34,623 nt of DNA from a virus. Of the stretch, positions 1 to 19,918 are shown piece after piece (positions within the stretch are counted from its first letter, which is position 1; every line of letters begins with the position of its first letter). The notes under the pieces are model-generated. The model saw only the letters and a list, made by a program, of their open reading frames with translations. It was not told where the DNA came from and did no database searches. A program made the translations under genes and the position numbers. Location of the stretch: IMG/VR virus record IMGVR_UViG_3300044630_000639, positions 1-34,623 of that record, one strand, 5' to 3'.

Positions 1-42
1 AAAAAACTCGTACGACTCGGTTAAGAATTCATTGGCTCTCAT
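1..42 (-). CDS. Partial leader-bearing protein (5' end only)
   Basis: The first 14 codons of a gene that runs off the window read MRANEFLTESYEFF from an ATG at 42-40. The start follows the stop of the upstream gene by one base (TAA-T-ATG), as in the other tightly packed genes of this cluster. The peptide nearly matches the start of the neighbouring gene (MRAREFITES) and carries L-T-E followed by S, the shape of a T4 gp21 prohead-protease site after a capsid-targeting leader. The body of the protein is outside the window, so its function cannot be judged. Confidence 0.75.
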   Translation of the reverse strand, partial: MRANEFLTESYEFF

Positions 43-43
43 A

Positions 44-526
44 TTAGCTCTTATAATAGAAGTAGTGTATATCTTCTTCTGGATTATACTTTACTACTAA
101 ATCGTCTAACACAAACTCATCACCATATTCGTCAACTAATTGTGCGAATGTAGTAGCATCACCAAAGATGTATTCAATAACATCATCGTCGGTACAATTG
201 CCTTGATAGTTTAAGTCAGCATCTTCAGTTAATTCTGTATCCTTAAACACGCTGTATAGAATAGGGTAGTCTTCATCGCCAACCATACCCGAAGCTACAG
301 GCTGATGCCCGCCCTCACGGCGGATAAAATCAGCAAATACTTCTTGAAACACTTTTTCCGGATTTCTGCGGTAAGCTCTACTAGATTGACAGTCATCAGT
401 AAAGCCTTCAAAGTGTACACGGTAATCGCCTACTTCGTCTACACCAACATCATCTGGTGTTAGGTCATTTAAGAATTCCGCAATTTCAGGATCTAATGAT
501 TCAGTTATAAATTCACGTGCTCTCAT
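44..526 (-). CDS. Acidic protein of unknown function with capsid-targeting-like leader
   Basis: A 160-residue, strongly acidic protein of no family I recognise. It starts MRAREFITES, which resembles the T4 internal-protein capsid-targeting sequence (MKTYQEFIAE followed by A) and contains the I-T-E site that a gp21-type protease would cut. The rest is rich in Asp/Glu (DLTPDDVGVDEVGDY, CTDDDVIEYIFGD) with many aromatic residues and no transmembrane segment. The ATG overlaps the stop of the 233-residue gene (TAATG), so the two are probably co-translated. Inference: a small protein packaged in the head and delivered with DNA. Its molecular role is unknown. Confidence 0.7.
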   Translation of the reverse strand: MRAREFITESLDPEIAEFLNDLTPDDVGVDEVGDYRVHFEGFTDDCQSSRAYRRNPEKVFQEVFADFIRREGGHQPVASGMVGDEDYPILYSVFKDTELTEDADLNYQGNCTDDDVIEYIFGDATTFAQLVDEYGDEFVLDDLVVKYNPEEDIHYFYYKS

Positions 527-1227
527 TATTTTAAACTCAAATCATCGTCTTGTTGTTGACGGTATGCGTTACTTAATTTGTCCATGTACTTCATATTACG
601 TAGGATTTTAAATGCTAGATTTTCTGTGCTGAATTCGCCGCCAGCATCTAATCCTGCACGGCGCATTTTACGAATCTTTTCTGATATACGTTTAATATCT
701 TCTGGATCATCAGCGGCTACAATAGCATGATCAATTTGGCTACGTAGATCTAATACTTTGGCATTAACACTAGCACGATCAATTGATGGCACTTTAAAGT
801 CGGGAGTTTTAAGCCACTTATTGTTTAACAAACTATACACACCTTCGCTAACTGGAGGTTGCGCAACATCTTCTACATATAATTCCACATCATAACCGTA
901 GATAGTAATGTCGTGTCCATCATTCCAAATTTGTTTCTTGGCACGATAGAACGCTTCGGCAATATCATCGCACTGTAGGTCACTGTAGTTAGTAACCACG
1001 TGTACATCAAAGTCACTGAACTTAGTCCAGTTATAGTTGGCCATACTACCTGTTAACACAACATCTTCTACTTTAAAATTAGGAATCTCTAAGTAGCTAA
1101 CAAATCGTTCGGCTATTTCTAACAAGCGATTGCGAACTTCTTCGATGAGTGTGTTATCGTCCCAAGCCGCTGGATTCAGCTGACTGTTATAAGCAACGTT
1201 GTTCTTGGTAAAATCTCTAGCTCTCAT
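526..1227 (-). CDS. Nucleotidyltransferase-fold protein (Pol beta superfamily)
   Basis: A 233-residue protein whose segment TGSMANYNWTKFSDFDVHVV (about residues 59-78) is the G-S...D-x-D signature of Pol beta-type nucleotidyltransferases, with the two metal-binding aspartates in SDFDVH. This superfamily transfers NMP to nucleic acids, proteins or small molecules; the substrate here is unknown. The C-terminal half is helical and basic (KRISEKIRKMRRAG). It begins MRARDFTKNN, sharing the MRARxF start of its neighbours but lacking the hydrophobic-x-E cleavage residues, so its leader may be degenerate. It lies in the same overlapping operon, downstream of the GNAT gene. Confidence 0.8.
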   Translation of the reverse strand: MRARDFTKNNVAYNSQLNPAAWDDNTLIEEVRNRLLEIAERFVSYLEIPNFKVEDVVLTGSMANYNWTKFSDFDVHVVTNYSDLQCDDIAEAFYRAKKQIWNDGHDITIYGYDVELYVEDVAQPPVSEGVYSLLNNKWLKTPDFKVPSIDRASVNAKVLDLRSQIDHAIVAADDPEDIKRISEKIRKMRRAGLDAGGEFSTENLAFKILRNMKYMDKLSNAYRQQQDDDLSLK

Positions 1228-1235
1228 TGTTTATC

Positions 1236-1613
1236 CTAACCGTTTGTAAAATCAAATAACGCATCTTCGCCTTTGTCTGTTAAGGCAGAATTCTGTACCA
1301 ATCCATTGGCTGCTAATGACTGTTGTAGTGCGTCAAAGTCTTTAGTTTGTCCTAGACTATCATAGCCATACCCTAGCTCGTTGTCGTGTGCAGTTTGAAT
1401 TGCTTTTAGCACTAACATAGTGCCGTACCCTTTTCTTTGAAATTCTGGGGAAATACTCACGTCGTGAAATGCATCACCTTCTTCGTCAACACTATATTTG
1501 TATGCGCCTACTTTGACATTTCCGACAAATAATTCCACAGTGAATCCACGAGCAAAGTTACTTTGGCTACTTACTCGAAATTTATTAGTGTTAGTAACTT
1601 CGTTTATCAGCAT
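1236..1613 (-). CDS. GNAT-family N-acetyltransferase
   Basis: A 125-residue protein with the acetyl-CoA-binding motif A of GNAT enzymes in VSISPEFQRKGYGTMLVLKA (about residues 52-71), including the Q/R-x-x-G-x-G/A pyrophosphate loop. It would move an acetyl group from acetyl-CoA to an amine; the acceptor is unknown. The N-terminus MLINEVTN contains I-N-E followed by V, a possible prohead-protease site like those of its neighbours. The start follows the previous stop by one base. It is short for a GNAT domain, with the C-terminal part diverged (ALTDKGEDALFDFTNG), so activity is not certain. Confidence 0.75.
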   Translation of the reverse strand: MLINEVTNTNKFRVSSQSNFARGFTVELFVGNVKVGAYKYSVDEEGDAFHDVSISPEFQRKGYGTMLVLKAIQTAHDNELGYGYDSLGQTKDFDALQQSLAANGLVQNSALTDKGEDALFDFTNG

Positions 1614-1614
1614 A

Positions 1615-2976
1615 TTAGTGTATTGCGTATTCTACACGCTTGCCTTCTTTATCTGTGTACAGCAAACTAACGTCCCATGCTCCATTACCACCTGCACGTT
1701 TAACGTAGATGTGATCTTTAATCCATTCTGCTACACCACCGTCACTATCTCTGCCGCTGATATTTTGTTCTAGGCTGTAGATAAAGATTTGATCGAGATC
1801 TGATATTTCTTGTGTATCGGCACCCCACTCACGACCTGTTTCTTCGGCTAGCGCACGCACATCCCATGGCTGTAAATCCACAGCATTATTGATAGAGACA
1901 ATAAAATCATTTGCTTCGTAATTCCAACTGGTGTAACTTTCGTCAGCATCTGCTGCAGCATCAAAGTCAATTTCGCCTTCTTCCTCGTGGCCTTCTGGAT
2001 ATACATATCCTTTTTCACGTAGGTAATCCCACCAGTAGTCGTCCCCAACTTCCCAATCATTGACTATTTCACTAACATGATCGTTTACGGCTGTTTTAAT
2101 TTTTTCTATTAACGGTTTTAGTACTTCGTCGGAAGCAAAGACTATCCAATCATTCAAATAGCCTTCTGGCATTTCTTCCTGGAAAAACGGTACTAAATTG
2201 CCAAAGCGCACTGTTAGTAAATCTACAATACTGTCTACACTGTTGTCGCCTTCGTCCATAAACTGACCACTAGGGAAGTGTAGTTGATATTTTTCACCTT
2301 CGTAGTCAGGCCGTTTAGGCAGTAGGATATACATTTGTCCATCGCGGGCATACTGCTCGAATCTATTGTTTTCACGTGCGGCTGTACACCATCTAGTGCC
2401 TTGACCATAGTAACAGGCTGCATCTTCGTCATGCGGCACAATAATGCGCACAGCTTCATTTTCGAACGCAGTGTAGGCATCGCCCTTGCTCATAGTTTTA
2501 GCAGCATCCTGTTCTTCTTTGGCCGCTAAGGCGTTACGCAGATCGAGATTTTGTGCAATATCTTCTAGTCCAGCAAAGTCAATGCGACCAATGTCACGAT
2601 ACTCTGCAGGTAAGATTTTTTTAACTTTAAATTCGTGATACATTTTAAGCGCACTGTTACCACGGCTTATTATATCTTCTAATTTGATGCCTTGGTTAGC
2701 ATATACTTTAGTCAACCATTGTACATACTCTTTATTAGGAGTAGGGTCGGAATTTTCAATTACAACCATGATATGGTCAATGATTATTTGACGTTGTTCT
2801 GCTGTAATCGCATCATTAATCTTGATCTTTTGATCAATGAACGCACGGTCTGTGCCTAATTGTGTACCAGAAAGAGTATGGCTCTTGTCCTTACCCAAGG
2901 CCGCAACAAGTTTATTGCCAAAGACATTAACTGTCTTTTCTCTACTGTATTCTCTTAAAAATTCTTTAAATCGCAT
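1615..2976 (-). CDS. Large phage protein with GTRWCTAA motif and capsid-targeting-like leader
   Basis: A 453-residue protein starting MRFKEFLREYS from the ATG at 2976; an in-frame TTG one codon upstream is less likely. The leader has L-R-E followed by Y, a plausible gp21-type site. The central part (about 185-235) has ACYYGQGTRWCTAA followed by F-x-x-Y and K-Y-x-L-H-F, a conserved signature I associate with uncharacterised proteins of large phages. The C-terminal third is acidic and Trp-rich. It overlaps the upstream nucleotidyltransferase gene by 11 bases. No catalytic activity can be assigned from sequence alone. Context suggests it belongs to the same head-packaged set. Confidence 0.75.
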   Translation of the reverse strand: MRFKEFLREYSREKTVNVFGNKLVAALGKDKSHTLSGTQLGTDRAFIDQKIKINDAITAEQRQIIIDHIMVVIENSDPTPNKEYVQWLTKVYANQGIKLEDIISRGNSALKMYHEFKVKKILPAEYRDIGRIDFAGLEDIAQNLDLRNALAAKEEQDAAKTMSKGDAYTAFENEAVRIIVPHDEDAACYYGQGTRWCTAARENNRFEQYARDGQMYILLPKRPDYEGEKYQLHFPSGQFMDEGDNSVDSIVDLLTVRFGNLVPFFQEEMPEGYLNDWIVFASDEVLKPLIEKIKTAVNDHVSEIVNDWEVGDDYWWDYLREKGYVYPEGHEEEGEIDFDAAADADESYTSWNYEANDFIVSINNAVDLQPWDVRALAEETGREWGADTQEISDLDQIFIYSLEQNISGRDSDGGVAEWIKDHIYVKRAGGNGAWDVSLLYTDKEGKRVEYAIH

Positions 2977-3907
2977 CAAACTGTCCTAATATACGCTGTG
3001 CTTCTCTAGTCAATAATGCTTTAGTATCCTCGGCTTTTTTCTTAGCCTCTGGAGTTTCTGCCTTATCAAACTTACTGCTATTAACTGCCTTGCTTATTTT
3101 ACTTATGTAAATTGCTTTGACTTGTTCTATTAGCTCAGGACGACCTAGACTTTCGGCAATGCCAACAATACTGTTAATAGTATTTGAAGTTTTTATTTCG
3201 TCACCCATGCCCGGATACTTGGCTAGACGTGCGCTGATAGTTGGTGCACCGAGAAACTTAGCAATATCTACGGCCCATGTATCAGGATTGTTAGTTATAG
3301 TTCTAAGCTCTGTATCTTTAGTTTGTCTAAAACTAACCGGTACACCATTCTGCAATTTAACCTGTACACCGCGCCCGCCAAAGCTAAGATTTAATGCTTC
3401 TGCCAAGGATGAATATAAACTTGCACTTAGTACACCCTTAACATTGTACTCTGGGCCCAATGCACGACTCCACTGTTCATTCTCATAGTAAGCTGTAACA
3501 AAGTCAACTTGTACATATTGATCGCCTACTTTAATTATAACATTTGTACCGTTGCTAGTCGAGTAGTTTGGGTTACTGTCGCAAAACTCTTTGATAGCTG
3601 AACTGTATGTTTGTTCGTTAGCATTGTCTGACATGTCGGGTAGTCGTGGCACAAAGAAATTAACATCAATGTCACCATACTCGCGTTGAGGATTTTGCGC
3701 AAGGTCACGTTTGTAGTAGGTTGTACTGCCAACCGGTGTGCCTATCTTAACTGGTGCTAGGTCTTTGGTTTTTAAGAAAGCATTTAATGCTTGTTCAAAT
3801 GCAGGTAATGATTGTACAACAACATCAACTAGTGCAGGTGTGATATGTGTACCTTGTGTTAAAGTACTTGCCCAACCGCCTTCTAGAATAAATTCCTTTG
3901 CTCTCAC
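2966..3907 (-). CDS. Nucleotidyltransferase-fold protein with leader, GTG start
   Basis: A 313-residue protein. About residues 55-90 hold PVGSTTYYKRDL and then REYGDIDVNFFVPR, the G-S...D-x-D metal-binding pattern of Pol beta-like nucleotidyltransferases, with a further Asp in QYVQVDFVTAYY as the usual third carboxylate. It starts at GTG (3907), whose last bases form the TGA of the upstream gene (GTGA overlap), which fixes the start. The leader MRAKEFILEGG carries I-L-E followed by G, a good prohead-protease site. The C-terminus is helical and Lys-rich. The substrate is unknown; it may form a functional pair with the next nucleotidyltransferase. Confidence 0.8.
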   Translation of the reverse strand: MRAKEFILEGGWASTLTQGTHITPALVDVVVQSLPAFEQALNAFLKTKDLAPVKIGTPVGSTTYYKRDLAQNPQREYGDIDVNFFVPRLPDMSDNANEQTYSSAIKEFCDSNPNYSTSNGTNVIIKVGDQYVQVDFVTAYYENEQWSRALGPEYNVKGVLSASLYSSLAEALNLSFGGRGVQVKLQNGVPVSFRQTKDTELRTITNNPDTWAVDIAKFLGAPTISARLAKYPGMGDEIKTSNTINSIVGIAESLGRPELIEQVKAIYISKISKAVNSSKFDKAETPEAKKKAEDTKALLTREAQRILGQFDAI

Positions 3908-4641
3908 AGCACTGCCTTCCAGTTCTTAAACCATGCCGCTGAACCTTCACCTACTATCTCTTGACGTGTTTCTGGCAATTGTACATTTTCTTTGCCTAAG
4001 GTTTCACGTGCATCTGCTACTAAGGCATTGTAGTTAGGCAAATTTTTAATCTTAGCTAGTATAGTTTCAACTGATGCTAGATCAGCTGCACTACCATTGA
4101 ATAGTTTGTGTGCAATTTCACTTGGGTCTTTAGAAACGACTTCATTAGTCTCACGATCCATTAGGCCGTTTTTGTATGACCATTTCATGCCCTGTGCTTT
4201 GGCAATTGATGCTAGTAACACATGGCGATGCATGCCTTTGAATGGGCTACCTTCTGGACTACCTGTCATACTAAAACGTTGGAAACTAGGATCACCAAAC
4301 ATAAAATCAGTTTGTACATAGCCATTCTTTGCTTCGCCATTGATGGGTGTTTTAAAATGTACGCTGTCGCCTGTCTTTTTAATGTCAGTAGGTTCAATGC
4401 CTTTCTTTAATAGTTGTTGTACCAGTACATCTTTGCTGATTTTACTCACATCAACTGCTAGGTCTAGGTCGCCACTTGTTTCTTTGTAGCCAGTTGACCC
4501 TAGCATATTGTCTACTAGATTAAGTCCTGTTAATTGCTCTAACCATTTAACTGTAGGAATGACATCTGCACGATTGATACGTCCGGTTGCTTCGCTACCA
4601 TCAGCTAGTTTAAATACATTCCCACCTTCAGTTATTTTCAT
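3904..4641 (-). CDS. Nucleotidyltransferase-like protein with short leader
   Basis: A 245-residue protein with NMLGSTGYKETSGDLDLAVDVSK (about residues 46-68), again the G-S...D-x-D pattern of the nucleotidyltransferase fold, and a later acidic strand QTDFMFGD that could supply the third metal ligand. The N-terminus MKITEGGNVF has I-T-E followed by G. The ATG at 4641 is preceded by AAAGG and, further upstream, by a T4-late-like AATAAATA box (4667-4674), so this is probably the first gene of the leader-bearing operon that continues to position 1. The reaction catalysed is unknown. Confidence 0.78.
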   Translation of the reverse strand: MKITEGGNVFKLADGSEATGRINRADVIPTVKWLEQLTGLNLVDNMLGSTGYKETSGDLDLAVDVSKISKDVLVQQLLKKGIEPTDIKKTGDSVHFKTPINGEAKNGYVQTDFMFGDPSFQRFSMTGSPEGSPFKGMHRHVLLASIAKAQGMKWSYKNGLMDRETNEVVSKDPSEIAHKLFNGSAADLASVETILAKIKNLPNYNALVADARETLGKENVQLPETRQEIVGEGSAAWFKNWKAVL

Positions 4642-4666
4642 ACCGGACCTTTTATACTCTATTAAG

Positions 4667-4674
4667 TATTTATT
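4667..4674 (-). promoter_or_regulatory. Late-type promoter box AATAAATA
   Basis: The minus strand reads AATAAATA, seven of eight bases of the T4 late consensus TATAAATA, 25 bases before the ATG at 4641. The spacing leaves room for a short leader with the AAAGG ribosome-binding site. It would drive the operon 4641 to 1. Confidence 0.55.
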
Positions 4675-4681
4675 TAAAATA

Positions 4682-5743: not shown

Positions 5744-5754
5744 GTATATCCTTG

Positions 5755-6558: not shown

Positions 6559-6576
6559 TGAAAGATCCTTGTTGTT

Positions 6577-7113: not shown

Positions 7114-7119
7114 ATTACT

Positions 7120-7148
7120 ATTATATAGTATGTGTAATCGATAATCAA
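7120..7148 (-). promoter_or_regulatory. Sigma70-type promoter, possible leaderless start
   Basis: The minus strand has TTGATT (7148-7143), a 17-base spacer and TATAAT (7125-7120), four of six and six of six consensus matches. The -35 overlaps the TGA stop of the glycine-rich gene. The -10 ends six bases before the ATG at 7113, so transcription should begin at or next to the start codon. Confidence 0.65.
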
Positions 7149-9748
7149 CCTGGTGCTATGCCAGACCATGTAATTATACCAAAACCAGATTGACCTGCTG
7201 ATCCAGGGATATTTTTGTATCCTGCTGCTGACCCAGCACCGCCACGTGCACCGCCATTAGTAGAGCCTCGGCCTGGACTGAAGTAACTTTGAGCTCTGGC
7301 TGCTCCACTTGCACCGCCGCTCTGTAATAAGATAGTGCTTGCACCCAGAGCAATAGTAGACGACCCTCCTGCGGCACCTGCACCTTGGCCACCGCCACCC
7401 GCACCACCTGTACCGATATCATATGAATATGTTTGCCCTGCTGATACAGTTCGAGTTACTGATACTAAATCCGATGCACCACCACCAAGACCAAACAACC
7501 AGTGATTTTTATCGCCGCCATCTGATCCGCCACCACCGCCACCGCCACCGCATATAGTAAATGTAGCTGAGGTTACATAAGCTGGAACAGTCCAACTACC
7601 GCTACCTGATATTGTCAATGATCCAGTAAATGGTACAGGAGTTCTTGACGTATCTGCAATTGCACAACTAGCACTTGCACCTTTACCGTCTAGTGTAATA
7701 GTTATATTTTCTACACCTTCTGTAGTCAAGTCGTTACTAAGAGTAAACGCAGCAGATTCAGCTGAGCCAACTATAAATTGTCCAGTCATGGCTCCTGATG
7801 ATAAATCGGCAGCATTAACGCCACTTAGTGACCATCGAACTACTTCTCCGGTGGTTGCTCCAACAGATGACATGGTAAAGGTTACTGTCTCGCCTTCATC
7901 TATAGATGCGGTATCTCCGAATATACTGTACACAGGACTAAGTGATATATTATTTACTATACACGATGCACTAACTCCTTTATTGTCAAGAAATACTTTT
8001 AATGTTCTTGCTCCGTATGTTGTATGATTTAATTTTGGAGTAAAGCTAATTGTGTCAGTTGTACCTACTACAAAATTACCACTCAACGCACCAGCCGTTA
8101 ATGCAGTTGCGTCTATACCAGTTGCGGTATAATGAACTACTGTACCATTTGTTAGGCCAGTACCACCCAAAGTGAATGTAACTGTATCGCCTTCATCTAC
8201 TGAACTAAAATCAGGAGTCAGCGTGTAGATTACTGTAGGGTCATTTAGATTTTCCGCACCTTGGATTGATCTGGATGTAATTAACGGTTGCCATGCACCA
8301 CTAACTTTAGTCCAACCATTTAATAATTCTTTCCACATGCCATCAACTTTAACCCATGCACGATCAATACTTCTCCAATTATTAGATTTTTTTAAATTAA
8401 TATTAAAAGATTTTGTAAAGACTAAAAGCGCAGCTCCATTTTTGTCTGGATATCCGGGATTAGTACTTGGATACTCAGGTATTGAGGCGCCGCCTGGGCC
8501 AGAACCAGAACCTGCTTGTATAATAGTTCCGTAGCTTATACCGCCTTCGCCACCGTCGGATCCATTGGTACTACTAGCACCAGCCAGGCCGCCAAAATAT
8601 CCACCACCGCCACCACCACCAGTAGATGGACCTTCTGCTGAATCAGCACCTTGGCTTGTTCCGCCACTGCCTCCGACTATCTGAGCATTGCCGCCAACTT
8701 TACCTTGAGTCCCAATTATACCACCACCTCCGCCACCGCCACCACCTGCAGCAACAGCAACTACCACACCGTTAACTGTGATAACAGTGGCTCCACCGCC
8801 ACCACCACCGCGTCCTTCCCTAGATGCAGCACCGGCAGTGCCGCCGCTGAAATTAGTTGGACTAGTTAATCCTTTACCACCAGCATATCTTACTCCGGCG
8901 CCACCGACTGACACTACAACAATATCGCCCTGCGTTACTCTTATTTTTCTATTTGCATATCCGCCTGTTCCGCCTGTTCCGCCTTGGCCGCCACCATACG
9001 AAGTGTATACCGGTTCGTACACTGGAGCATATACTGGTTCATATACTGCTTGTACTCCCTCGGGTACTGCGGCCCACGACACAATAACTGTACCAGAACT
9101 ACCTGCTGCACCCGATGATCCATATCCGCGCGGTGATCCTGACCCACCGGAACCAGCACCGATAGCAGAAGATGCGCCTGGAGATACAGCTTTAACTGCT
9201 CTGTTTGCACCTCCGCCGCCACCTGCAGCCTTTACGATAGTTGCTCCGTTTACTGCAACAACAGTTGCTGATCCTGCTCGTCCTGCCCTATCTGTGCCGC
9301 CGCCTTTTCCACCAGCACCTACAGTGGCAGTAATTATTTGGCCCGGTGTCACGGCTACAGTTGTTGTAGCCAATTCCCCAGCTTGTCCGCCTAGTCCATA
9401 TATATTATGATTCTTATCGCCACCATCAGAGCCGCCGCCTCCACCACCGCCACCAACGGCAGTTATGTTAACGGATGTAACTCCTTTTGGAACAACTAAC
9501 TCTTTACTTACAATTGCTTGCCCGGCAGCAACGCCCGCTCTTACTACAACCGTTCCAACTACTTGAGTTCCAGTTTGTACACTACCGACTTGGCGTGTCC
9601 CAGTCTGACGAGCAACCGTTTCACCAGCGGTGCCGCTTCCACCGCCACCGCCCCATAAGAAAAACTCAAGTGCGCTGACTCCTTGCGGAATAACGTAGAT
9701 GTATGTACCAGGTATAGTATATTCTGTAGTTTGACTTATAAGACTCAT
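7145..9748 (-). CDS. Glycine-rich tail-fibre/adhesin-like protein
   Basis: An 867-residue protein. Residues 1-445 contain long poly-Gly lattices (for example 99-110, 315-319, 335-343, 377-383) between short beta strands. A YEPVYAPVYEPVY repeat lies at about 236-248. Residues 457-490 form a Trp-rich motif (W-x-K-V-D-G-x-W and W-T-K-V-S-G-x-W) like those in other phage fibres. Two related Calx-beta/Ig-like repeats follow (about 505-600 and 605-705, each with D-E-G-D/E-T-V-T-F-T), then a third glycine-rich domain (712-867) that repeats the GGSDGGDKNH block seen at about 105-114. This fits a distal receptor-binding fibre or adhesin; direct proof is lacking. No signal peptide is seen. Confidence 0.75.
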   Translation of the reverse strand: MSLISQTTEYTIPGTYIYVIPQGVSALEFFLWGGGGGSGTAGETVARQTGTRQVGSVQTGTQVVGTVVVRAGVAAGQAIVSKELVVPKGVTSVNITAVGGGGGGGGSDGGDKNHNIYGLGGQAGELATTTVAVTPGQIITATVGAGGKGGGTDRAGRAGSATVVAVNGATIVKAAGGGGGANRAVKAVSPGASSAIGAGSGGSGSPRGYGSSGAAGSSGTVIVSWAAVPEGVQAVYEPVYAPVYEPVYTSYGGGQGGTGGTGGYANRKIRVTQGDIVVVSVGGAGVRYAGGKGLTSPTNFSGGTAGAASREGRGGGGGGATVITVNGVVVAVAAGGGGGGGGGIIGTQGKVGGNAQIVGGSGGTSQGADSAEGPSTGGGGGGGYFGGLAGASSTNGSDGGEGGISYGTIIQAGSGSGPGGASIPEYPSTNPGYPDKNGAALLVFTKSFNINLKKSNNWRSIDRAWVKVDGMWKELLNGWTKVSGAWQPLITSRSIQGAENLNDPTVIYTLTPDFSSVDEGDTVTFTLGGTGLTNGTVVHYTATGIDATALTAGALSGNFVVGTTDTISFTPKLNHTTYGARTLKVFLDNKGVSASCIVNNISLSPVYSIFGDTASIDEGETVTFTMSSVGATTGEVVRWSLSGVNAADLSSGAMTGQFIVGSAESAAFTLSNDLTTEGVENITITLDGKGASASCAIADTSRTPVPFTGSLTISGSGSWTVPAYVTSATFTICGGGGGGGGSDGGDKNHWLFGLGGGASDLVSVTRTVSAGQTYSYDIGTGGAGGGGQGAGAAGGSSTIALGASTILLQSGGASGAARAQSYFSPGRGSTNGGARGGAGSAAGYKNIPGSAGQSGFGIITWSGIAPG

Positions 9749-10437
9749 TAATCAGTTTCCTTGGTGTTGCAAATTGTGTCGTAATCTTGCATTGTTAGTG
9801 TATTACCTTCATGACTTAGAGCAATTAAACGTTCTGCTAAATCGTGTAAATCCGCATCTGTTTCGGCATCTTCGCGAGCAAATTCAAATAAGCGTATTAA
9901 TAGTGGAATATCGACACTAATAACATCTTGTGGATTAAATTCTTCCTTAACTGGTATCTCGCCGGTTAACGGACCTGCCGCTGGAGTTGCTGCACCGCCA
10001 CTTGCACCATCATCTGCGCTGTGCCATTGATCTGTGCCGTCATTCCATTGATCATTACCGTTGTGCCATGCTGGATTATCACCGGCCCACGCATCTTCTT
10101 TAACGTGTTTAAAATAGTTAACCTGACGTTCACGTTTTTCAGCACCAGCTCGAGTTGGATATTTACCTAAGTTCTTACCAGTATGTGATTTAAGTTCATA
10201 CTGGCTGCCCACTTTTACAATTGTTTCGTCTACAGGTTTAGCCAGTGCTGTTGCTTTTTGGTGAATACGTGTGCTGTATTCTTTACCATATTTGTTACGC
10301 AAATGCGTCATGTAATCAAAATATTCCTGACGTGCCTTAGTATCAGATAGTGCTCTATTCACTAGACCGTGTGCAGTAACAACATCTGCTACTTCATTAT
10401 CTTCGTTAACTGCTGGATTAAAATCTTGTATACGCAT
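9748..10437 (-). CDS. Leader-bearing modular protein, probably head-packaged
   Basis: A 229-residue protein starting MRIQDFNPAVNEDNE; V-N-E followed by D resembles the leader cleavage site of its neighbours. Residues 75-111 form a small beta-beta-alpha module (YELKSHTGKNLGKYPTRAG then EKRERQVNYFKH) that is common in phage proteins. V-K-E followed by D (112-115) and V-K-E followed by E (163-166) are further protease-like sites on either side of an Asp/Trp/Gly-rich linker with a repeated D-Q-W motif. The C-terminus is an acidic helical domain. The gene overlaps the fibre gene by one base and is preceded by a late box. Function unknown. Confidence 0.65.
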   Translation of the reverse strand: MRIQDFNPAVNEDNEVADVVTAHGLVNRALSDTKARQEYFDYMTHLRNKYGKEYSTRIHQKATALAKPVDETIVKVGSQYELKSHTGKNLGKYPTRAGAEKRERQVNYFKHVKEDAWAGDNPAWHNGNDQWNDGTDQWHSADDGASGGAATPAAGPLTGEIPVKEEFNPQDVISVDIPLLIRLFEFAREDAETDADLHDLAERLIALSHEGNTLTMQDYDTICNTKETD

Positions 10438-10465
10438 AATTGCTCTCAGATTGACTCATATAAGA

Positions 10466-10473
10466 TATTTATG
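10466..10473 (-). promoter_or_regulatory. Late-type promoter box CATAAATA
   Basis: Minus-strand CATAAATA, seven of eight bases of the T4 late consensus, 28 bases before the ATG at 10437. It would drive the leader-bearing gene and the fibre gene behind it. Confidence 0.55.
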
Positions 10474-10507
10474 CTAATTTAATTCTAAGTAAAACTTATA
10501 AAAAGAC

Positions 10508-10536
10508 TTGACTTTAACGGTAAAAGATAGTATAAT
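10508..10536 (+). promoter_or_regulatory. Sigma70 promoter for the plus-strand gene
   Basis: TTGACT (10508-10513), a 17-base spacer and TATAAT (10531-10536): eleven of twelve consensus bases at optimal spacing. It points to the gene at 10571. Transcription should start near 10543. A six-codon ORF (ATG at 10541, stop at 10561) lies within the short leader and may be chance. Confidence 0.8.
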
Positions 10537-10570
10537 AGCTATGTCTTTAATCAACCTATGAGTAAACTCA

Positions 10571-11017
10571 ATGACACAAATAGCAGAATTATTAAATGAA
10601 ATTATCGGTGACCCAATTAACGGACCATATGAAGGTGAGGATTATTGGATTGACACTGATGGCACAATACAAGTAGCTGAGAACAATGTTAAGTTGGCGG
10701 CCATAATTATGCGTCGAGCAAATAGTAGTGGATACTTTGATACTAAGTTAGTTAAAGTAGGCAACAAGGGTGATAGTATATTACTTGGCTTTGATACTAT
10801 GGCTGACATTGAGCCGGTGTACACATCAAAAATTGGATTCAAACGTGATACCTTAGCCGAAGTAAAGCGAGATTTGGCTGGCAAGTTCTGTGTGTATCTT
10901 AATAAGAAACGTGCTAGTCGTATGTTTAGTAAACTATCAGCGGTTAAAGCGTATCTAAAGAAATTAGACTTGGATTTACAAACAGACGGGCAAGAGCCAG
11001 AAGCACTAGACGATTAA
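10571..11017 (+). CDS. Plus-strand early-type gene of unknown function
   Basis: A 148-residue protein that I do not recognise. It is soluble, with an acidic N-terminal half (EGEDYWIDTDGTIQV) and a Lys/Arg-rich C-terminal half (AEVKRDLAGKF, YLNKKRASRMF, VKAYLKKLDLD), ending acidic. It is the only plus-strand gene in the first 27 kb and has its own strong sigma70 promoter, so it is probably expressed early from host RNA polymerase. The ribosome-binding site is weak. It converges on the 961-residue gene, with a perfect hairpin between them. A small regulatory or takeover protein is possible, but that is inference from position and promoter only. Confidence 0.75.
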   Translation: MTQIAELLNEIIGDPINGPYEGEDYWIDTDGTIQVAENNVKLAAIIMRRANSSGYFDTKLVKVGNKGDSILLGFDTMADIEPVYTSKIGFKRDTLAEVKRDLAGKFCVYLNKKRASRMFSKLSAVKAYLKKLDLDLQTDGQEPEALDD

Positions 11018-11035
11018 AGGGTTGCCCCTTTAATC
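11012..11035. terminator. Bidirectional hairpin between convergent genes
   Basis: A perfect 10-bp stem (GATTAAAGGG with CCCTTTAATC) around a TTGC loop spans the stop of the plus-strand gene and ends one base before the stop of the minus-strand gene. A clear U-tract is missing on either side, so termination may be partial. Confidence 0.6.
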
Positions 11036-13921
11036 TTATGGTGTTAGTTTAGCTTGATTTGCTATAGTTTTAAACTGTGATGCAAGTTTAGGATCTGCAG
11101 CGGCTTTGTTAAGCACACCCATTATTGGAGCAAGTGCTTTTACATCAGTTGATGTTGCTGTGCCTAACGTAGCTGAATCAAGTGCTTTATCCAATGTGGC
11201 CGGAGCAACCGTAGTGCCTGTTGCGGTTTTTAGTGTATTAGTTGCCGCAGCCGCTTTTGCTACAGCCGCTGGATCAGCTGGTTTAGCACCCGGTGTTGCG
11301 GTAGCTACTGTGGCTGCACCAGGAACTGCAAACTCTTTAACGGGCTTTTTTACAGCGGCTTTTTCCTTACGTAAGCGTATTTGTTCTTGGCGTTCTGCTG
11401 GTGTAGGAACCTGAACATTCTGCATACGATCCATATTACCTAACTTAGTAGCAATAACTTTATGTCCACGTGATTCTTTAAATTCACGCAACTTGCTTTG
11501 TAAGTCTGAATACTGTTGATTTAAACTGCCTAATCTACGTGCTAATTCATCTTTAAGTTGTGGATCTTGTGATGTAGTCGGATCCATTTGAATTTGTTGT
11601 AATGCACTACGTTTAGCCTGATAATCTTCTCGATCAAGTAATGGGGTTTCACTGCCTTCACCTAGACGATTGCGACTAGCCGCACGTGCTGCCATACTGC
11701 TTACACCTGCTTGTGCTTGCTTTTTATCCTTCATAGGATCTTCATTCTTAACAGTTAAAATTTCATTAGAGAATTTAACTTTAGTAGGATTAATACTGTC
11801 AACATAGTGTTGAATAGCTGGACTATTGTTGTTAGCATCTACTAGATCTTTAAGTAAGAATGGTTGACTTGTAGCGGCTACTACCATATTAGTAATAACT
11901 TCTGGTGCAACTTCTGTATGTCCCTGTTGAATAAGTTCTTGTACTGCGGCCAACACAGCGCCTTCAACTGGATCGTTAGATTCAATACCTTCATTAATAG
12001 CACGGTAAGCTAAGTTCTTACCATAGTTAGATTGGATGTAGGCCATAGCGTGCCCTTTAGTTGGGAACACTTTATCGGTGACTGGCTGACGTGTATCAAG
12101 GCTAACTACGTGATACCCTTTAGCTTCTGGTTCTTTTTGAGCATAAGGCGCATCTAATTTCTCTTGACGATGTGCATCATATTCAGCATCTGGATCACGT
12201 TCAACTCTGGTACGCTCTTCAGGACCACTTTCCCAACCTTCTTCTACGTCTTTACTAACAGTATCATGATAGTATTCGGCGCTTGCTACTTTTAAACCAT
12301 TGGCTTCTGCGTACTGTTTAGCACCTTTATGTGTGCGGAATTTTTTCTTAACTGTTTTAGTTTTTGGATCGTATACATAGAAATCGTTGTTCCAAGTAGT
12401 ACGTGCTTCCACCACACCTTGATTTTGCTTTTTAATCCATGCATTGGCTTCTTCAGCTGATTTAAATGGACCAGCAACACTTCCGCCTTGACCATCTTTA
12501 AATACACGCCAAACACCGTCTTTAGTTTCACGACCAGTGTAGTTTTCTGCTAGGTCTTTTACTAAACGTACATCTTGTTTAAGCACTACTGCTTGCCCAC
12601 CATCTTCTAAGTCTAGGTCAAGATATACACGATTTCTTAACTTGTCAGTTTTGATCTGACGAACATATCCAGTTTTACCAGCATCACGACCTTTAACGAT
12701 AGTAACTTTTTTGTGTAGACCTTTGCTAGGACCACGACCTTCTGCCATGTTACCATGATCTACGTAAAAGCGTTCGTTGCTACTACCATTAGCCGCTGCA
12801 TTGTCTTTAGCATTGTTTAAATTTTGTACCAATGATTCAATACTCTTTGGGTTAAGATTGATTTTTCTGTTACCACGTTCATGTTCGTATGATTTACCAG
12901 TTTCTAATGTGTAGCCATAGTATTCAATAAGTTCAGCTAACGTACCTGACTTACTACGCTCTCTACCATTTCTTTCTGATGTTATTGAGTAAACATCAGC
13001 CGCACCTTCACCAACTTGTGTATAAGGATGTGGATCGTTTTCTTCTTCATCACGATTGCGATTACGCTCTTGTTCGGCATCAGTTGGAACTTCTTTAGGC
13101 CAAGGAATTGATTTTCTTTTTGCTGCACGTTGTTTAGCTTGAGATTTGGCAAATTCTTCCATACCTTCTCCTAATAAATCTTCGTCGTCATCATGATCCC
13201 AGCTATCGTCATCTTCTTCGTCATCATAGTCATCATCTTCTTCCGCAGGACCGTAGTCCATAACGTCTAAACTGTCCCAACCTTGGTTAGGGTGATAGTT
13301 ACCATTGGCTTTAAGAGCAAACTCTGTAGCTTTGTGTGCTAGATCGTCGTAGCTGGTAACCGGACCAATATACTGTTCTAGTTGTCTATAACTTGCTTGG
13401 TTAAATTCATCACCATCATTGAAGTGACGATAGACAATTTTACTAGCCGCACGCAACACTTCACCTTCAATAGTTTCTGCCGCACCCTGTGCCGGTACTA
13501 ATTTTTCATATAGTGCTTCGTATTCTTTTTGTAATGCTCCGGTACCATTCCAGTAGGTACGTGGCTCATCAGGTAAACTAACACGATCACTACCTGTGTT
13601 CCAACCTTCTTCAACAGTGGTATAACGTTTACTTGGCTTACCATGTTTAGTATATTCACGACCTGGTCTGCTACCTTTACGACTTGGACGTTTTTCTTCT
13701 ACACCAATGTCATCTTCCATAAAATTAGCGTATGCTTCTGCTAATTCTTCTTCTTTAGTTTTAGGAGTAGGACCTTTAGCTAGATCTTTGATGATGCTAT
13801 CTCCTACTAATTTTTTACCCGGGGTACCTTTGTCTGTACCCTTCCATTGCTCACCTGGTTTTTGTTCAGGCTCACCGGCAAATTTAGACATAGCTTCTAA
13901 TAGTTTTCGCATCATACTCAT
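11036..13921 (-). CDS. 961-residue modular protein, candidate head-packaged polyprotein
   Basis: A hydrophilic protein with leader MSMMRKLLEAM (L-L-E followed by A). Motifs of the form hydrophobic-x-E then G/A/N recur at Glu 9, 62, 105, 252, 305, 394, 459, 505, 561, 644 and 755, between small modules. These include a very acidic stretch (226-248), a KOW-like segment (403-435: KVTIVKGRDAGKTGYVRQI) and three related beta-beta-alpha units (about 467-498, 511-541 and 602-633). The C-terminus is Ala/Thr/Pro-rich. The motif is the one cut by T4 gp21-type prohead protease, so the chain may be processed in the head. The ATG overlaps the stop of the 55-residue gene (ATGA). Function unknown. Confidence 0.75.
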   Translation of the reverse strand: MSMMRKLLEAMSKFAGEPEQKPGEQWKGTDKGTPGKKLVGDSIIKDLAKGPTPKTKEEELAEAYANFMEDDIGVEEKRPSRKGSRPGREYTKHGKPSKRYTTVEEGWNTGSDRVSLPDEPRTYWNGTGALQKEYEALYEKLVPAQGAAETIEGEVLRAASKIVYRHFNDGDEFNQASYRQLEQYIGPVTSYDDLAHKATEFALKANGNYHPNQGWDSLDVMDYGPAEEDDDYDDEEDDDSWDHDDDEDLLGEGMEEFAKSQAKQRAAKRKSIPWPKEVPTDAEQERNRNRDEEENDPHPYTQVGEGAADVYSITSERNGRERSKSGTLAELIEYYGYTLETGKSYEHERGNRKINLNPKSIESLVQNLNNAKDNAAANGSSNERFYVDHGNMAEGRGPSKGLHKKVTIVKGRDAGKTGYVRQIKTDKLRNRVYLDLDLEDGGQAVVLKQDVRLVKDLAENYTGRETKDGVWRVFKDGQGGSVAGPFKSAEEANAWIKKQNQGVVEARTTWNNDFYVYDPKTKTVKKKFRTHKGAKQYAEANGLKVASAEYYHDTVSKDVEEGWESGPEERTRVERDPDAEYDAHRQEKLDAPYAQKEPEAKGYHVVSLDTRQPVTDKVFPTKGHAMAYIQSNYGKNLAYRAINEGIESNDPVEGAVLAAVQELIQQGHTEVAPEVITNMVVAATSQPFLLKDLVDANNNSPAIQHYVDSINPTKVKFSNEILTVKNEDPMKDKKQAQAGVSSMAARAASRNRLGEGSETPLLDREDYQAKRSALQQIQMDPTTSQDPQLKDELARRLGSLNQQYSDLQSKLREFKESRGHKVIATKLGNMDRMQNVQVPTPAERQEQIRLRKEKAAVKKPVKEFAVPGAATVATATPGAKPADPAAVAKAAAATNTLKTATGTTVAPATLDKALDSATLGTATSTDVKALAPIMGVLNKAAADPKLASQFKTIANQAKLTP

Positions 13922-14085
13922 TTTGTTTTTCTCTTTTTAGGTTGTTTATACGTGCCACCAAACAATGTGCCCACTTTAGGACCTGTGCCTACACCTGGTA
14001 CAGTAGCAATAGCGCCAGAGCTAGTTGCTCCGCTGGTTGCATCTTCGGTTAAGTCTGGTCGTTTGATAATATCGGTTATTTTCAT
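13918..14085 (-). CDS. Short basic protein, leader-like N-terminus
   Basis: A 55-residue gene. It starts MKITDIIKRPDLTEDATSG, with L-T-E followed by D as a possible protease site, continues as a Gly/Ser/Thr/Val-rich segment (GAIATVPGVGTGPKVGTLFGG) and ends in a basic tail (YKQPKKRKTK). Its TGA overlaps the ATG of the 961-residue gene (ATGA), supporting translational coupling and a real gene. The basic tail and the leader fit a small DNA-associated internal head protein, but no family is recognised. Confidence 0.65.
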   Translation of the reverse strand: MKITDIIKRPDLTEDATSGATSSGAIATVPGVGTGPKVGTLFGGTYKQPKKRKTK

Positions 14086-14090
14086 ATATG

Positions 14091-14098
14091 TATTTATT
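14091..14098 (-). promoter_or_regulatory. Possible late-type box AATAAATA
   Basis: Minus-strand AATAAATA next to the stop of the 100-residue gene. It is only five bases from the ATG at 14085, so a transcript starting here would have almost no leader for that gene; it could still serve the 961-residue gene. Confidence 0.3.
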
Positions 14099-14396
14099 GT
14101 AATGTAAAACTTATGGTATGTTCATTGATCTGTTCAACATTAAATGTTTGATTGACAATTTGTAAATTACGCAGGGAGAATTGTGCTATGGAGTTGCTCT
14201 GAGAGATTATTTCAATTCTAGCAATATTGTTATTATTGTTAGGCATCACTATCCAGATATTTTCGTTAATTAACGTTTTAGAATCCCAAATCCAAGTGCG
14301 TTCTGTTAATAAATCATCATTTATATACAATCGATAATTATTTTGTTCAACAGGATCTATACAATGTACTTCTACTGTAAGATTTATTGCGTTCAT
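14094..14396 (-). CDS. Small beta-rich protein of unknown function
   Basis: A 100-residue protein with alternating hydrophobic strands (INLTVEVHCID, NYRLYINDDLLTERTW, NIWIVMP, IARIEIISQSN, QFSLRNLQIV, HTISFTL), the pattern of a single beta-sandwich like carbohydrate-binding or virion decoration domains. It resembles in style the 149-residue protein encoded at 15163-15612. It starts two bases after the stop of the NMNAT-like gene. No catalytic motif or signal peptide is seen. A virion accessory or sugar-binding role is inference. Confidence 0.6.
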   Translation of the reverse strand: MNAINLTVEVHCIDPVEQNNYRLYINDDLLTERTWIWDSKTLINENIWIVMPNNNNNIARIEIISQSNSIAQFSLRNLQIVNQTFNVEQINEHTISFTLQ

Positions 14397-14397
14397 A

Positions 14398-15132
14398 TTA
14401 GATTAAGCGTAATGCTTTGAGATTTTTATTAATAGCACCGGGTTTGATATCTACAGTAAGCGCACTGGCCCATCGTGGATCATTGGCTTCTTTCTTATTC
14501 TTTGGAATATAACCACTACATTCTGCTAATTCTGGATCTGCTAACATCATACCTTTACGCACTGCTTGGTATAAAGGTTCAGCTAGTTTACCTGCACCTG
14601 TTGCCTGCGCAAATGCTTGTAAGTCATTATTAGCCGCTGCCTCACGTGCTGAACTAGCACTAACACCTGCTATACCATCTGCATCAGGATCACGTTCACC
14701 ACTAGAAACAAATTTAATATCATCAAACTTGTAGTAAGCACCATTAACACCTTCTACGCCATTGTACTTAGGTATCAATTCTTGGAAACTATCAATACGA
14801 TCACTACCTGCAACCATTGTTATATTTCTATAACCCTTGGCATATAACCAATGAATAACGTCCATGATAGTTTTTATGTTAGTATCGTATACAACATGGC
14901 CTGCTTGATCTGGAAATAATGCTCGAACAAACTTAACTTTGGTAGCGTAATCTAACGGATTCTTTTTCTTATCTTGTGATTGGCTAACAAACACAAAGTA
15001 ATCACCACCTTGACTAGCTTTGGCTACAGTGTTGATTAATTGTCCGTGCCCTACAGTAGGAGGATTCATGCGGCCAAAACAAAATGCTGCATGTTTAGTA
15101 GTTGTTGATTCAAAAATTTCAGTGAGAAACAT
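14398..15132 (-). CDS. NMNAT-like nucleotidyltransferase with capsid-targeting-like leader
   Basis: A 244-residue protein with the HIGH-superfamily fold. FCFGRMNPPTVGHGQLI (about 18-34) carries the nucleotide-binding T/H-x-G-H motif and GVSASSAREAA the (I/V)S-x-S/T-x-x-R motif of NMN and pantetheine-phosphate adenylyltransferases. The likely reaction is adenylyl transfer from ATP, for example to NMN to make NAD. The N-terminus MFLTEIFESTTT has L-T-E and I-F-E sites and closely resembles the T4 Alt start (MELITELFDE as I recall it), which is cut by gp21. So the enzyme may be packaged and injected. A late-like ACTAAATA box lies 22 bases upstream. Confidence 0.8.
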   Translation of the reverse strand: MFLTEIFESTTTKHAAFCFGRMNPPTVGHGQLINTVAKASQGGDYFVFVSQSQDKKKNPLDYATKVKFVRALFPDQAGHVVYDTNIKTIMDVIHWLYAKGYRNITMVAGSDRIDSFQELIPKYNGVEGVNGAYYKFDDIKFVSSGERDPDADGIAGVSASSAREAAANNDLQAFAQATGAGKLAEPLYQAVRKGMMLADPELAECSGYIPKNKKEANDPRWASALTVDIKPGAINKNLKALRLI

Positions 15133-19846: not shown

Positions 19847-19853
19847 AATAGTT

Positions 19854-19882
19854 ATTATATGTGAAAAAAGGAGAATTGTCAA
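19854..19882 (-). promoter_or_regulatory. Consensus sigma70 promoter for dnaJ-clpA
   Basis: TTGACA (19882-19877), a 17-base spacer and TATAAT (19859-19854): twelve of twelve consensus bases. The -35 lies partly in the loop of the upstream terminator hairpin and the spacer holds its U-tract. The predicted start (about 19847) is at the dnaJ ATG. Confidence 0.85.
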
Positions 19883-19894: not shown

Positions 19895-19918
19895 ATTTAC
19901 TATCAAAATTACATATGG

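What the first reader, a model, noticed from the sequence alone, without database searches (positions are those of the whole stretch)
1..15132. A family of proteins with T4-like capsid-targeting leaders: candidate injected effector set
Eleven genes begin with short leaders that end in hydrophobic-x-Glu or share the MRAxxF start: MRANEFLTE-S, MRAREFITE-S, MRARDF (no Glu), MLINE-V, MRFKEFLRE-Y, MRAKEFILE-G, MKITE-G, MRIQDFNPAVNE-D, MSMMRKLLE-A, MKITDIIKRPDLTE-D and MFLTE-I. T4 internal proteins and Alt carry comparable leaders (MKTYQEFIAE-A; MELITE-L) that target them to the prohead and are cut by gp21 after (L/I)xE. The bodies are otherwise unrelated: three nucleotidyltransferases, a GNAT, an NMNAT-like enzyme and modular acidic proteins. 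The simplest reading is that this phage packages a set of enzymes in its head and delivers them with its DNA. I know of no description of this particular set.
Basis: partly seen in the sequence, partly recalled or inferred. Interest (0 to 1): 0.88.

Follow-up and report, generated by a model that had tools for sequence, protein, structure and literature searches.

The report
Phage tag loading enzymes into heads
Several unrelated enzymes of an uncultivated large phage begin with the same kind of short tag that phage T4 uses to pack proteins into its head and inject them, and the same kind of tag sits on many other different proteins in other phages, so it may let one read from sequence which proteins a phage delivers into its host.

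Summary
In detail: all eleven N-termini are in the window (ten genes plus one cut by the edge), and they are not chance. A scrambled control gave 29 matches, 12 with such ORFs. Other genes on leader loci carry a leader-type start 61 of 1303 times, against 3 of 1578 on random loci.

Best reading, with corrections: T4-type capsid-targeting leaders cut by the prohead protease. Support: an S77 (gp21-family) protease in a 219-kb close relative; leaders close to proven T4 propeptides; orthologues whose leaders differ but all end hxE directly before the body; late-promoter-like boxes; and a homologue listed as mass-spectrometry-detected in Pseudomonas phage PA5oct. S77 also occurs in 10 of 10 leader contigs of 140 kb or more, but its base rate is high.

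Corrections: the NMNAT-like protein is more probably cut after MFLTEIFE; 526-1227 has no site; some cargo is lysin-like. Packaging, cleavage and injection are not shown for this phage. It is a new variant of a known kind.

The parts
1..43 (-). N-terminus MRANEFLTE|SYEFF of a gene cut by the window edge; full orthologue in G003 is a 102-aa minimal nucleotidyltransferase
   Evidence: Polbeta E 2.8e-7, NTP_transf_2 E 4.1e-6 for the orthologue
44..526 (-). MRAREFITE|S leader on a 160-aa protein of unknown function; in G001, L002 and G003 the same body is preceded by about 115 aa of other sequence and the leader is still at the N-terminus
   Evidence: no Pfam/PHROG hit
526..1227 (-). Nucleotidyltransferase with leader-like MRARDF but no hxE site (targeting-like part without a cut site)
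   Evidence: NTP_transf_2; phrog_36119; most orthologues lack the site; L082 has MLLREFTLE|S
1236..1613 (-). GNAT-family protein, MLINE|V; weakest member, leader seen only in near-identical genomes
1615..2976 (-). MRFKEFLRE|YSREKT leader on a 453-aa protein with invariant WCTA motif, unknown fold; homologue in PA5oct (EST35_0205) annotated 'structural protein, ESI-MS/MS'
2966..3907 (-). (V/M)RAKEFILE|GGW leader on a nucleotidyltransferase-like protein (invariant GS...GDID)
   Evidence: signature read by eye, no Pfam hit
3904..4641 (-). MKITE|GGN leader on a protein with predicted pol-beta-type nucleotidyltransferase fold; first gene of the seven-gene leader cluster
4666..4674 (-). T4-type late-promoter-like box (two overlapping matches) 33/32 nt upstream of the start codon at 4641
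9748..10437 (-). MRIQDFNPAVNE|D leader-like start on a modular protein (V at P3); late-promoter-like box at -36
11036..13921 (-). MSMMRKLLE|A leader on a 961-aa modular, partly acidic protein with internal hxE sites (possible polyprotein, weakly supported)
13918..14085 (-). Short basic protein: leader MKITDIIKRPDLTE| followed by DATSGATSSGAIATV, resembling a stretch of the major capsid protein's N-terminal arm; late-promoter-like box at -13 (unusually close)
14398..15132 (-). Cytidylyltransferase/NMNAT-like enzyme with leader MFLTEIFE|S

Best explanation
These are T4-style capsid-targeting leaders. Late in infection the leader (a positive residue, a short amphipathic stretch such as EF[IL], and [L/I]xE) docks each protein into the prohead core. 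The S77 (gp21-family) protease then cuts after the Glu, the leader leaves, and the mature body stays in the head with the DNA and enters the next host with it. The leader is a modular address tag carried by many different bodies (nucleotidyltransferases, GNATs, kinase-like, ADP-ribosyltransferase, DUF6267, NMNAT-like and others) in large phages that, where the head genes were examined, have a PA5oct-type head module. Shown here: the shared leader on bodies not linked by BLASTP, its N-terminal position, the hxE junction conserved where the rest of the leader is not, an S77 protease and hxE-bearing head proteins in such genomes, and late-type promoter boxes. Inferred: docking, cleavage, retention in the head, injection, and action on the host. 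The confidence given is for targeting and cleavage; for delivery of host-acting enzymes I would say about 0.6.
For: (1) Leader MRAxEFhxE on 137 IMG/VR proteins in 34 groups not linked by BLASTP against a scrambled control. (2) S77 protease in the 219-kb relative G003 (E 1.3e-20, gene runs off the contig end) and in G009, and in 10 of 10 leader contigs of 140 kb or more (the 140-kb line was drawn after seeing the sizes). (3) Head module portal - small core protein - gp68-like - S77 - gp22 - MCP: the small core protein next to the portal has [LI]xE within its first nine residues in 6 of 6 metagenomic genomes where BLASTP found it, and in PA5oct; MCPs begin e.g. MSKVLLE|SRWDETKEALLE|G. (4) T4's own propeptides match closely. 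(5) In the 3904-4641 family the leaders MKITE, MTRTLLKE, MSGNELLNE, MTLLLE, MLTE, MKAMISKLSE, MIVNE, MMYLYE differ but all end hydrophobic-x-Glu directly before GGN, and the homologue in phage Phosso starts at M-GG with no start codon upstream in frame; that of Atu_ph07 is annotated likewise (two upstream TTG codons exist, no hxE before GG). (6) An inserted segment in L124 and about 115 extra residues in the 44-526 family sit behind the leader, which stays at the N-terminus. (7) Late-promoter-like boxes precede 7 of 51 window genes against 0.4 expected, three of them leader genes. (8) PA5oct EST35_0205 (32% identical over 188 aa to window 1615-2976, E 2e-23) and EST35_0150 are listed as ESI-MS/MS-detected. 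Atu_ph07 gp53-gp63, with MRWEQLTE- and MRLFQLLE-type leaders, lie inside CDS 31-76, of which 29 products were found in virions (PMC6102473, section read in full; numbering). (9) In the AF2 models the leaders are low-confidence tails in front of folded bodies, which by itself is common at N-termini.
Against: The window contig itself has no S77 hit (a 34.6-kb fragment). S77 is common: 4 of 9 random contigs of 100 kb or more have it (1 of 2 at 140 kb or more), against 11 of 15 leader contigs of 100 kb or more, so co-occurrence alone is modest. Two large NTase-bearing contigs, G008 (354 kb) and G010 (240 kb), show no S77 hit although they carry MSDMRKLLE/MFIAEMFTE-type leaders. The exact MRAxEFhxE form is absent from G008, G009, G010, G039, T4, PA5oct, Atu_ph07 and Phosso, so the link to the isolates rests on the wider leader type. 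The loose motif does not separate MS-detected from other PA5oct proteins (17/65 against 26/98), and the PA5oct MS list also holds metabolic enzymes (ribonucleotide reductase, thymidylate synthase), so it is not proof of packaging. Which 29 of the Atu_ph07 cluster were detected could not be read. 526-1227 has no cut site. The Glu before GGN is invariant in the 14 aligned sequences and could in part belong to the body. The exact box TATAAATA occurs once in the window, below the 4.8 expected. The 961-aa protein is only weakly enriched in hxE sites (21 against 16.0, sd 3.4). GH19, M23 and LysM bodies do not look like effectors.
Confidence: 0.8

Rival explanations
1. The leaders do target and mark prohead-core proteins (as in the best explanation), but the cargo mostly serves head assembly, DNA condensation or cell-wall entry, and is not a set of host-directed effectors.
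For: A leader-type start also sits on the portal-adjacent core protein; several bodies are short basic modules (by eye) or lysin-like domains (GH19 5, LysM 3, M23 1 of 137); the 13918-14085 protein resembles the MCP arm.
Against: Many bodies look like enzymes with no obvious structural role: nucleotidyltransferases, GNAT, ADPrib_exo_Tox, kinase-like, NMNAT-like, and DUF6267 proteins with a KWDGNP motif that looks ligase-like by eye; T4 Alt is a precedent for an injected enzyme (PMC9026906, passages).
Confidence: 0.25
2. The shared N-terminus is a translation-initiation or recombination cassette (a duplicated gene start), with no function as a peptide.
For: Adjacent paralogues share the start; the codon at position 2 is AGA in 121 of 146 matches.
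Against: 137 distinct 27-nt leaders among 146 matches and varied codons at Ala, Glu, Phe and Ile/Leu show peptide-level rather than DNA-level conservation; the hxE junction is kept in leaders of other length and sequence.
Confidence: 0.06
3. The leaders address the proteins to another place in the virion (tail, baseplate) or to a host site, and the hxE is incidental.
For: Localisation inside the head was not tested; hxE is a frequent tripeptide.
Against: Close match with T4 head propeptides and a leader-type start on the portal-adjacent core protein; the first ten residues of T4 IPIII suffice for head targeting (PMC9026906, passages).
Confidence: 0.08

Closest known systems
T4 internal proteins IPI, IPII, IPIII with capsid-targeting sequence (CTS)
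   Same: Ten-residue leader MKTYQEFIAE|A against MRAREFITE|S; basic second residue, EF[IL]xE, different bodies; S77 protease in T4 and in G003
   Different: T4 has three small IPs; here a larger and enzymatically diverse cargo and a different consensus start (MRA)
T4 Alt (head-packaged ADP-ribosyltransferase)
   Same: Short MELITE-type leader, enzyme cargo, TATAAATA box at -36
   Different: Window cargo is mainly nucleotidyltransferases and others; ADP-ribosyltransferase domains occur on leader proteins elsewhere (ADPrib_exo_Tox 1 of 137; Atu_ph07 array by eye)
T4 gp24 and gp23 propeptides
   Same: gp24 MAKINELLRE|S resembles MKINEILTE|A of G009; gp23 ..FLTE|A resembles EFLTE|S
   Different: Those are shell proteins, these are presumed core cargo
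Pseudomonas phage PA5oct virion proteins EST35_0150, _0205, _0238
   Same: Leader-type N-termini, homologous head module, EST35_0205 homologous to window 1615-2976
   Different: PA5oct has no exact MRAxEFhxE match
phiKZ/SPN3US ejection proteins with long propeptides
   Same: Prohead protease cuts after xxE; cargo ejected (PMC5694885, passages)
   Different: Several SPN3US propeptides exceed 100 residues; here 5 to 14
MuF fusions and polyvalent proteins (head-packaged effectors)
   Same: Idea of enzymes delivered from the head (PMC9503650, passages)
   Different: There delivery is inferred from fusion to head domains or gene context; here from a short detachable leader

Membership tests
T4-type CTS internal head proteins | N-terminal leader of about 5-20 residues ending in (L/I)-x-E | tested here: met
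   9 of 11 window starts contain such an end; MRIQDFNPAVNE has V at P3; MRARDF has none
T4-type CTS internal head proteins | Same leader on unrelated mature bodies | tested here: met
   34 groups among 137 leader proteins by BLASTP E<1e-3 single linkage, first 12 residues removed; a few singletons (L132, L143, L163) look alike by eye, so the true number is somewhat lower
T4-type CTS internal head proteins | gp21/S77 prohead protease in the genome | tested here: inconclusive
   Not in the 34.6-kb window contig, present in close relative G003 and in 10 of 10 leader contigs of 140 kb or more; not found in G008 and G010
T4-type CTS internal head proteins | Cleavage after the Glu | not testable with these tools
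   Only indirect: junction conservation and a leaderless homologue
T4-type CTS internal head proteins | Presence in the virion head | not testable with these tools
   A homologue in PA5oct is annotated ESI-MS/MS; not this phage
T4-type CTS internal head proteins | Late expression with head genes | tested here: inconclusive
   Late-type boxes at 3 leader genes in the window and at the portal in G003; exact TATAAATA occurs once in the window, below the 4.8 expected
T4-type CTS internal head proteins | Injection into the host | not testable with these tools
   none
phiKZ/SPN3US long-propeptide ejection proteins | Long propeptides (several over 100 residues) | tested here: not met
   Window leaders are 5-14 residues; definition from PMC5694885, passages
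MuF/polyvalent effectors | Fusion to MuF, portal or other head domains | tested here: not met
   No such Pfam domain at E<=0.01 in the ten complete leader genes scanned
Pol-beta-type nucleotidyltransferase (window 3904-4641) | Fold and GS/DxD active-site pattern | tested here: met
   AF2 model pLDDT 73.6, pTM 0.58; Foldseek best hits are pol lambda/mu/PolX, E 2.2e-5, prob 1.00, TM 0.43; VIA best Z 8.3, rmsd 4.1, 163 aligned; invariant G48, G51, G57, D58, D60. Activity untested

The most novel reading that the evidence does not exclude
A short leader works as a general loading code in a widespread group of uncultivated large phages: tens of enzyme and protein families, among them pol-beta-type nucleotidyltransferases, ADP-ribosyltransferases, kinases, acetyltransferases and ligase-like proteins, are swapped behind it and injected as a changing effector set, so that injected effectors can be read off genomes from their first ten residues. 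One short member even carries a copy of part of the capsid protein's arm behind the cut site.
Probability: 0.5. Interest if true: 0.88.

Novelty: new variant of a known kind. Interest (0 to 1): 0.74.

Why it matters
T4 shows that a ten-residue leader can load a protein into a phage head. If the same code is in use across uncultivated large phages with a far richer cargo, it gives a sequence-only way to propose which proteins a phage injects, which otherwise needs virion proteomics of isolates, and it points to enzymes (nucleotidyltransferases, the WCTA protein and others) that may act in the first minutes of infection on host RNA, proteins or defence systems.

Tried and rejected
Loose motif (any hydrophobic-x-Glu within the first residues): rejected as a criterion, since it fits many ordinary genes and does not separate MS-detected PA5oct proteins.

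S77 co-occurrence as sole proof: weakened by the random-contig base rate (4 of 9 at 100 kb or more). Of the 120 random loci, 50 were checked: ten of the eleven listed ones over 60 kb (L253 was dropped for the 50-locus limit) and the 40 unlisted ones. Of the leader loci, 60 of 120 were checked: the 20 listed ones of 65 kb or more and the 40 unlisted ones. Of the 29 scrambled-pattern loci, the 13 with contigs of 34 kb or more were checked (1 of 13 with S77, the only one over 140 kb). The 140-kb and 100-kb lines were drawn after the sizes were seen.

Fold of the WCTA protein (1615-2976): no PDB match (best Foldseek E 1.6; best Z 4.8) and no profile match (best E 0.4); function left open. Profile search with the 3904-4641 family against PDB sequences: only one weak match outside the fold class (E 0.021). 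PADLOC: only weak hits for the NTase 526-1227 (best E 0.0042). Polyprotein reading of 11036-13921: only weakly supported. One member of the 61-protein family that dominates the leader set (L072:1168-1542) has no match in the isolate phages by tblastn at E<=1e-3, nor has 2966-3907 at E<=1e-5. No close DNA relative of window 10000-34623 among phage records. The strict leader regex was written after the leaders had been seen, and the late-promoter box was defined from 8-mers enriched in G003 and from the recalled T4 late consensus, so their significance in those genomes is not fully independent; gene calls come from a simple script, not a trained gene finder. The ADP-ribosyltransferase reading of Atu_ph07 gp53-62 rests on motifs recognised by eye (YRG, S-x-F-C, conserved Glu); Pfam gave no hit for the seven of the ten that were scanned.

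Literature: the searches listed no paper that names an MRAxEF-type leader family; this covers only the held library and those terms. PMC9026906, PMC5694885 and PMC9503650 were seen as passages; PMC6102473 as abstract, passages and one section in full; all others only as listings. The PA5oct proteomics paper was not found or read; its MS data are the notes of the GenBank record.

Full report
OBSERVATION. One gene (MRANEFLTE-S) is cut by the window edge; one starts with GTG; one (1227..526) has MRARDF but no Glu. Seven of the genes form one co-directional run (4641..1); the others lie at 10437..9748, 13921..11036, 14085..13918 and 15132..14398. The window is a 34.6-kb virus record.

IS IT MORE THAN CHANCE. 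They hold 146 matches (145 with Arg, one with Ser at position 2); 137 open a frame of at least 60 aa, and 124 of these have fewer than 30 open codons upstream; 21 of 120 loci hold more than one match. A control in which RA and EF were swapped found 29 loci in the whole collection, with 12 frames of at least 60 aa, 4 of them with short upstream frames, and no locus with two matches. With the first 12 residues removed, the 137 proteins fall into 34 groups not linked by BLASTP, the largest with 61 members; a few singletons look alike by eye. There are 137 different 27-nt leader sequences among the 146 matches, so the peptide is conserved rather than a copied piece of DNA. Other genes on these loci carry a leader-type start in 61 of 1303 cases, against 0 of 436 on the control loci and 3 of 1578 on loci drawn with an arbitrary 14-mer. 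The loose form of the motif is not informative.

RELATIVES. The nucleotidyltransferase 526-1227 finds 19 loci in IMG/VR. G003 (218,902 bases, 97% identical in this protein) is largely colinear with the window, by eye, and continues the leader cluster with MRYSQIKQALKE, MNLFEMFE and MKSNEFLSE genes. Its last gene, cut by the contig end, is an S77 protease, E 1.3e-20; G009 (320 kb) also has one, E 5.6e-27; the other 12 of the 14 records searched show none, most of them short, but two large ones (G008, 354 kb; G010, 240 kb) among them. G009 carries its own set of leaders: MKINEILTE, MRINEIITE, MKITDVLDE, MKITEIILE, MKTTDFITE and others.

PROTEASE AND HEAD MODULE. Of the 60 leader-bearing contigs checked, 11 have S77: 10 of 10 at 140 kb or more, 11 of 15 at 100 kb or more. 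Of 50 random contigs checked 7 have it: 1 of 2 at 140 kb or more and 4 of 9 at 100 kb or more. Around the protease the gene order is portal, a small core protein, a gp68-like protein, S77, gp22, MCP, closest to PA5oct. The small core protein next to the portal was found by BLASTP in six metagenomic genomes (G003, G015, G016, G021, G026, G031) and begins MNLLE, MRLLE, MLLTE, MILNE, MKLFE and MILNE; that of PA5oct begins MKINDIITE. So a leader-type start is present on a presumed prohead core protein. In G025 other genes lie between portal and core genes, G009's contig begins behind this gene, and G039 (a scrambled-pattern contig) has a different T4-type module.

COMPARISON WITH T4 SEQUENCES. Read from the T4 record: IPII and IPIII MKTYQEFIAE-A, IPI MKTFKEFTSTTTPVSTITE-A, gp24 MAKINELLRE-S, gp23 ..SFLTE-A, Alt MELITELFDE-D. 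The window's MRAREFITE-S, G009's MKINEILTE-A and the window's MRANEFLTE-S match these closely. According to a review (PMC9026906, passages), gp21 cuts after L/I-X-E, only the first ten residues of IPIII are required for incorporation into the head, and foreign proteins fused to it are packaged and delivered.

JUNCTION EVIDENCE. In the 3904-4641 family the leaders differ in length and sequence but all end in hydrophobic-x-Glu directly before GGN. The homologue in phage Phosso begins at M-GG; there is no ATG, GTG or TTG upstream in frame. That of Atu_ph07 is annotated to begin at M-GG too; two TTG codons lie upstream in frame, but no hxE stands before GG. This places the border at E|G and suggests that the body does not need the Glu. 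In the 2966-3907 family, L124 has an inserted segment between leader and GGW. In the 44-526 family, relatives have about 115 extra residues between leader and body. In the NMNAT-like family, orthologues resume after MFLSQLFE, MLLRELFE, MKIKELVE, so the cut is probably after MFLTEIFE. In the AlphaFold models the leader is a low-confidence tail: residues 1-5 of 3904-4641 and 1-8 of 1615-2976; low confidence at N-termini is common.

EXPRESSION. Boxes of the ATAAATA type (compare the T4 late promoter TATAAATA, recalled) lie within 70 nt upstream of 7 of 51 window genes (0.4 expected), among them 4641 (-33), 10437 (-36) and 14085 (-13, unusually close), and of 31 of 256 genes in G003 (1.7 expected), among them the portal gene. 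T4 alt has TATAAATA at -36; none was found within 70 nt of ipI, ipII and ipIII. The exact TATAAATA is found once in the window, fewer than the 4.8 expected.

VIRION EVIDENCE FROM ISOLATES. Window 1615-2976 matches PA5oct EST35_0205 (32% over 188 aa, E 2e-23; first found through the orthologue L067:1615-2901), which is annotated 'structural protein, ESI-MS/MS' and begins MKLFEVFTLYE-D. The two of 170 called PA5oct genes in 36-184 kb that meet the strict leader regex, EST35_0150 and _0238, are both listed as MS-detected; of the 163 genes entered, 65 are. The list also holds metabolic enzymes, so detection is suggestive only. In Atu_ph07, ten tandem genes (gp53-gp62) start M[RK]W..L[TNI]E, and gp63 starts MRLFQLLE. 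By counting CDS (check points gp2, gp4-5, gp18 and gp70 agree with the paper) they lie inside CDS 31-76, where 29 products were found in virions. Which 29 was not readable here. PA5oct, Atu_ph07 and Phosso all have S77.

CARGO. Window: NTP_transf_2 and GNAT, cytidylyltransferase-like, pol-beta-like predicted fold for 3904-4641, no fold match for the WCTA protein. Over the 137 IMG/VR leader proteins: DUF6267 in 8, GH19 in 5, DUF6934 in 4, GNAT in up to 4, DUF6321 in 3, LysM in 3, Kinase-PolyVal in 2, ADPrib_exo_Tox in 1, M23 in 1. In G003 and G009: Polbeta, Amidoligase_2, LysM, DUF6267, a weak Kinase-PolyVal match and cytidylyltransferase-like among ten scanned, four without a hit. Enzymes that could act on host molecules are common; lysin-like domains are also there; most families remain without a name.

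A SIDE RESULT. The 55-residue protein 14085..13918 reads leader, LTE|, then DATSGATSSGAIATV, close to a segment behind an hxE site in the N-terminal arm of the G009 MCP (LSE|SATAGGTSAGSVATL). A motif written for this fits 3 of 1525 genes on leader loci (two short proteins, L112 and L132, and a 546-aa one, L084) and 0 of 492 on control loci. A short protein of the same plan is in Phosso and a similar segment in PA5oct EST35_0203, which is MS-listed. It may dock at the capsid shell; this is inference.

VERDICT. It is of the T4 CTS kind by all that could be compared, with a new consensus, another group of phages and a much broader cargo. I found no paper on this leader family in five searches. 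Cleavage, packaging, injection and effector action remain to be shown.

Noticed in passing
MF403008.1 (Atu_ph07) 39484-49507, in L229/L233: Ten tandem paralogues gp53-gp62 with MRWEQLTE-type leaders and ADP-ribosyltransferase-like YRG motifs (by eye), annotated only as hypothetical proteins.
   Followed up: partly
G014 (76-kb contig of L018), e.g. 6618, 11110, 14233, 40594, 41835, 42187 and 38877-40228: Two other recurring N-termini on different bodies: xxE|[NS]W(R/Q)xF (MKLILENWRSY, MQKLFENWRNF, MKNLFENWQNY) and MKITKSQLKQIIKEE, perhaps another leader code.
   Followed up: no
window 13918-14085: Short basic protein whose post-leader segment resembles part of the major capsid protein's arm.
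   Followed up: partly
L071:2092-2496 and 60 further leader proteins in its BLASTP group (L072, L073 among them): A family of mostly 117-141 aa, sometimes two in tandem, is the commonest leader cargo (61 of 137); the one member searched has no tblastn match in isolate phages.
   Followed up: partly
window 1615-2976: WCTA-motif protein (invariant W196 C197 T198 A199) with no PDB fold match; its orthologue in L067 finds PA5oct, other Pseudomonas jumbo phages and CcrBL9.
   Followed up: partly
G003 111650-112989; G009 240925-241818: Leader proteins made of short Cys/Lys-rich modules (SINCSNPKGFSQKAHC, FADGKKPGRKG) that recur in other leader proteins (by eye), possibly DNA-binding internal peptides.
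   Followed up: no
window 16691-19000, 19013-19906, 25911-26606, 28048-28827, 30726-31649, 31965-32321, 33530-33964: Other genes look like ClpA-type ATPase, DnaJ-like, ferritin-like, PhoH, sliding-clamp loader, GroES-like and MazG-like proteins (by eye, no search run).
   Followed up: no
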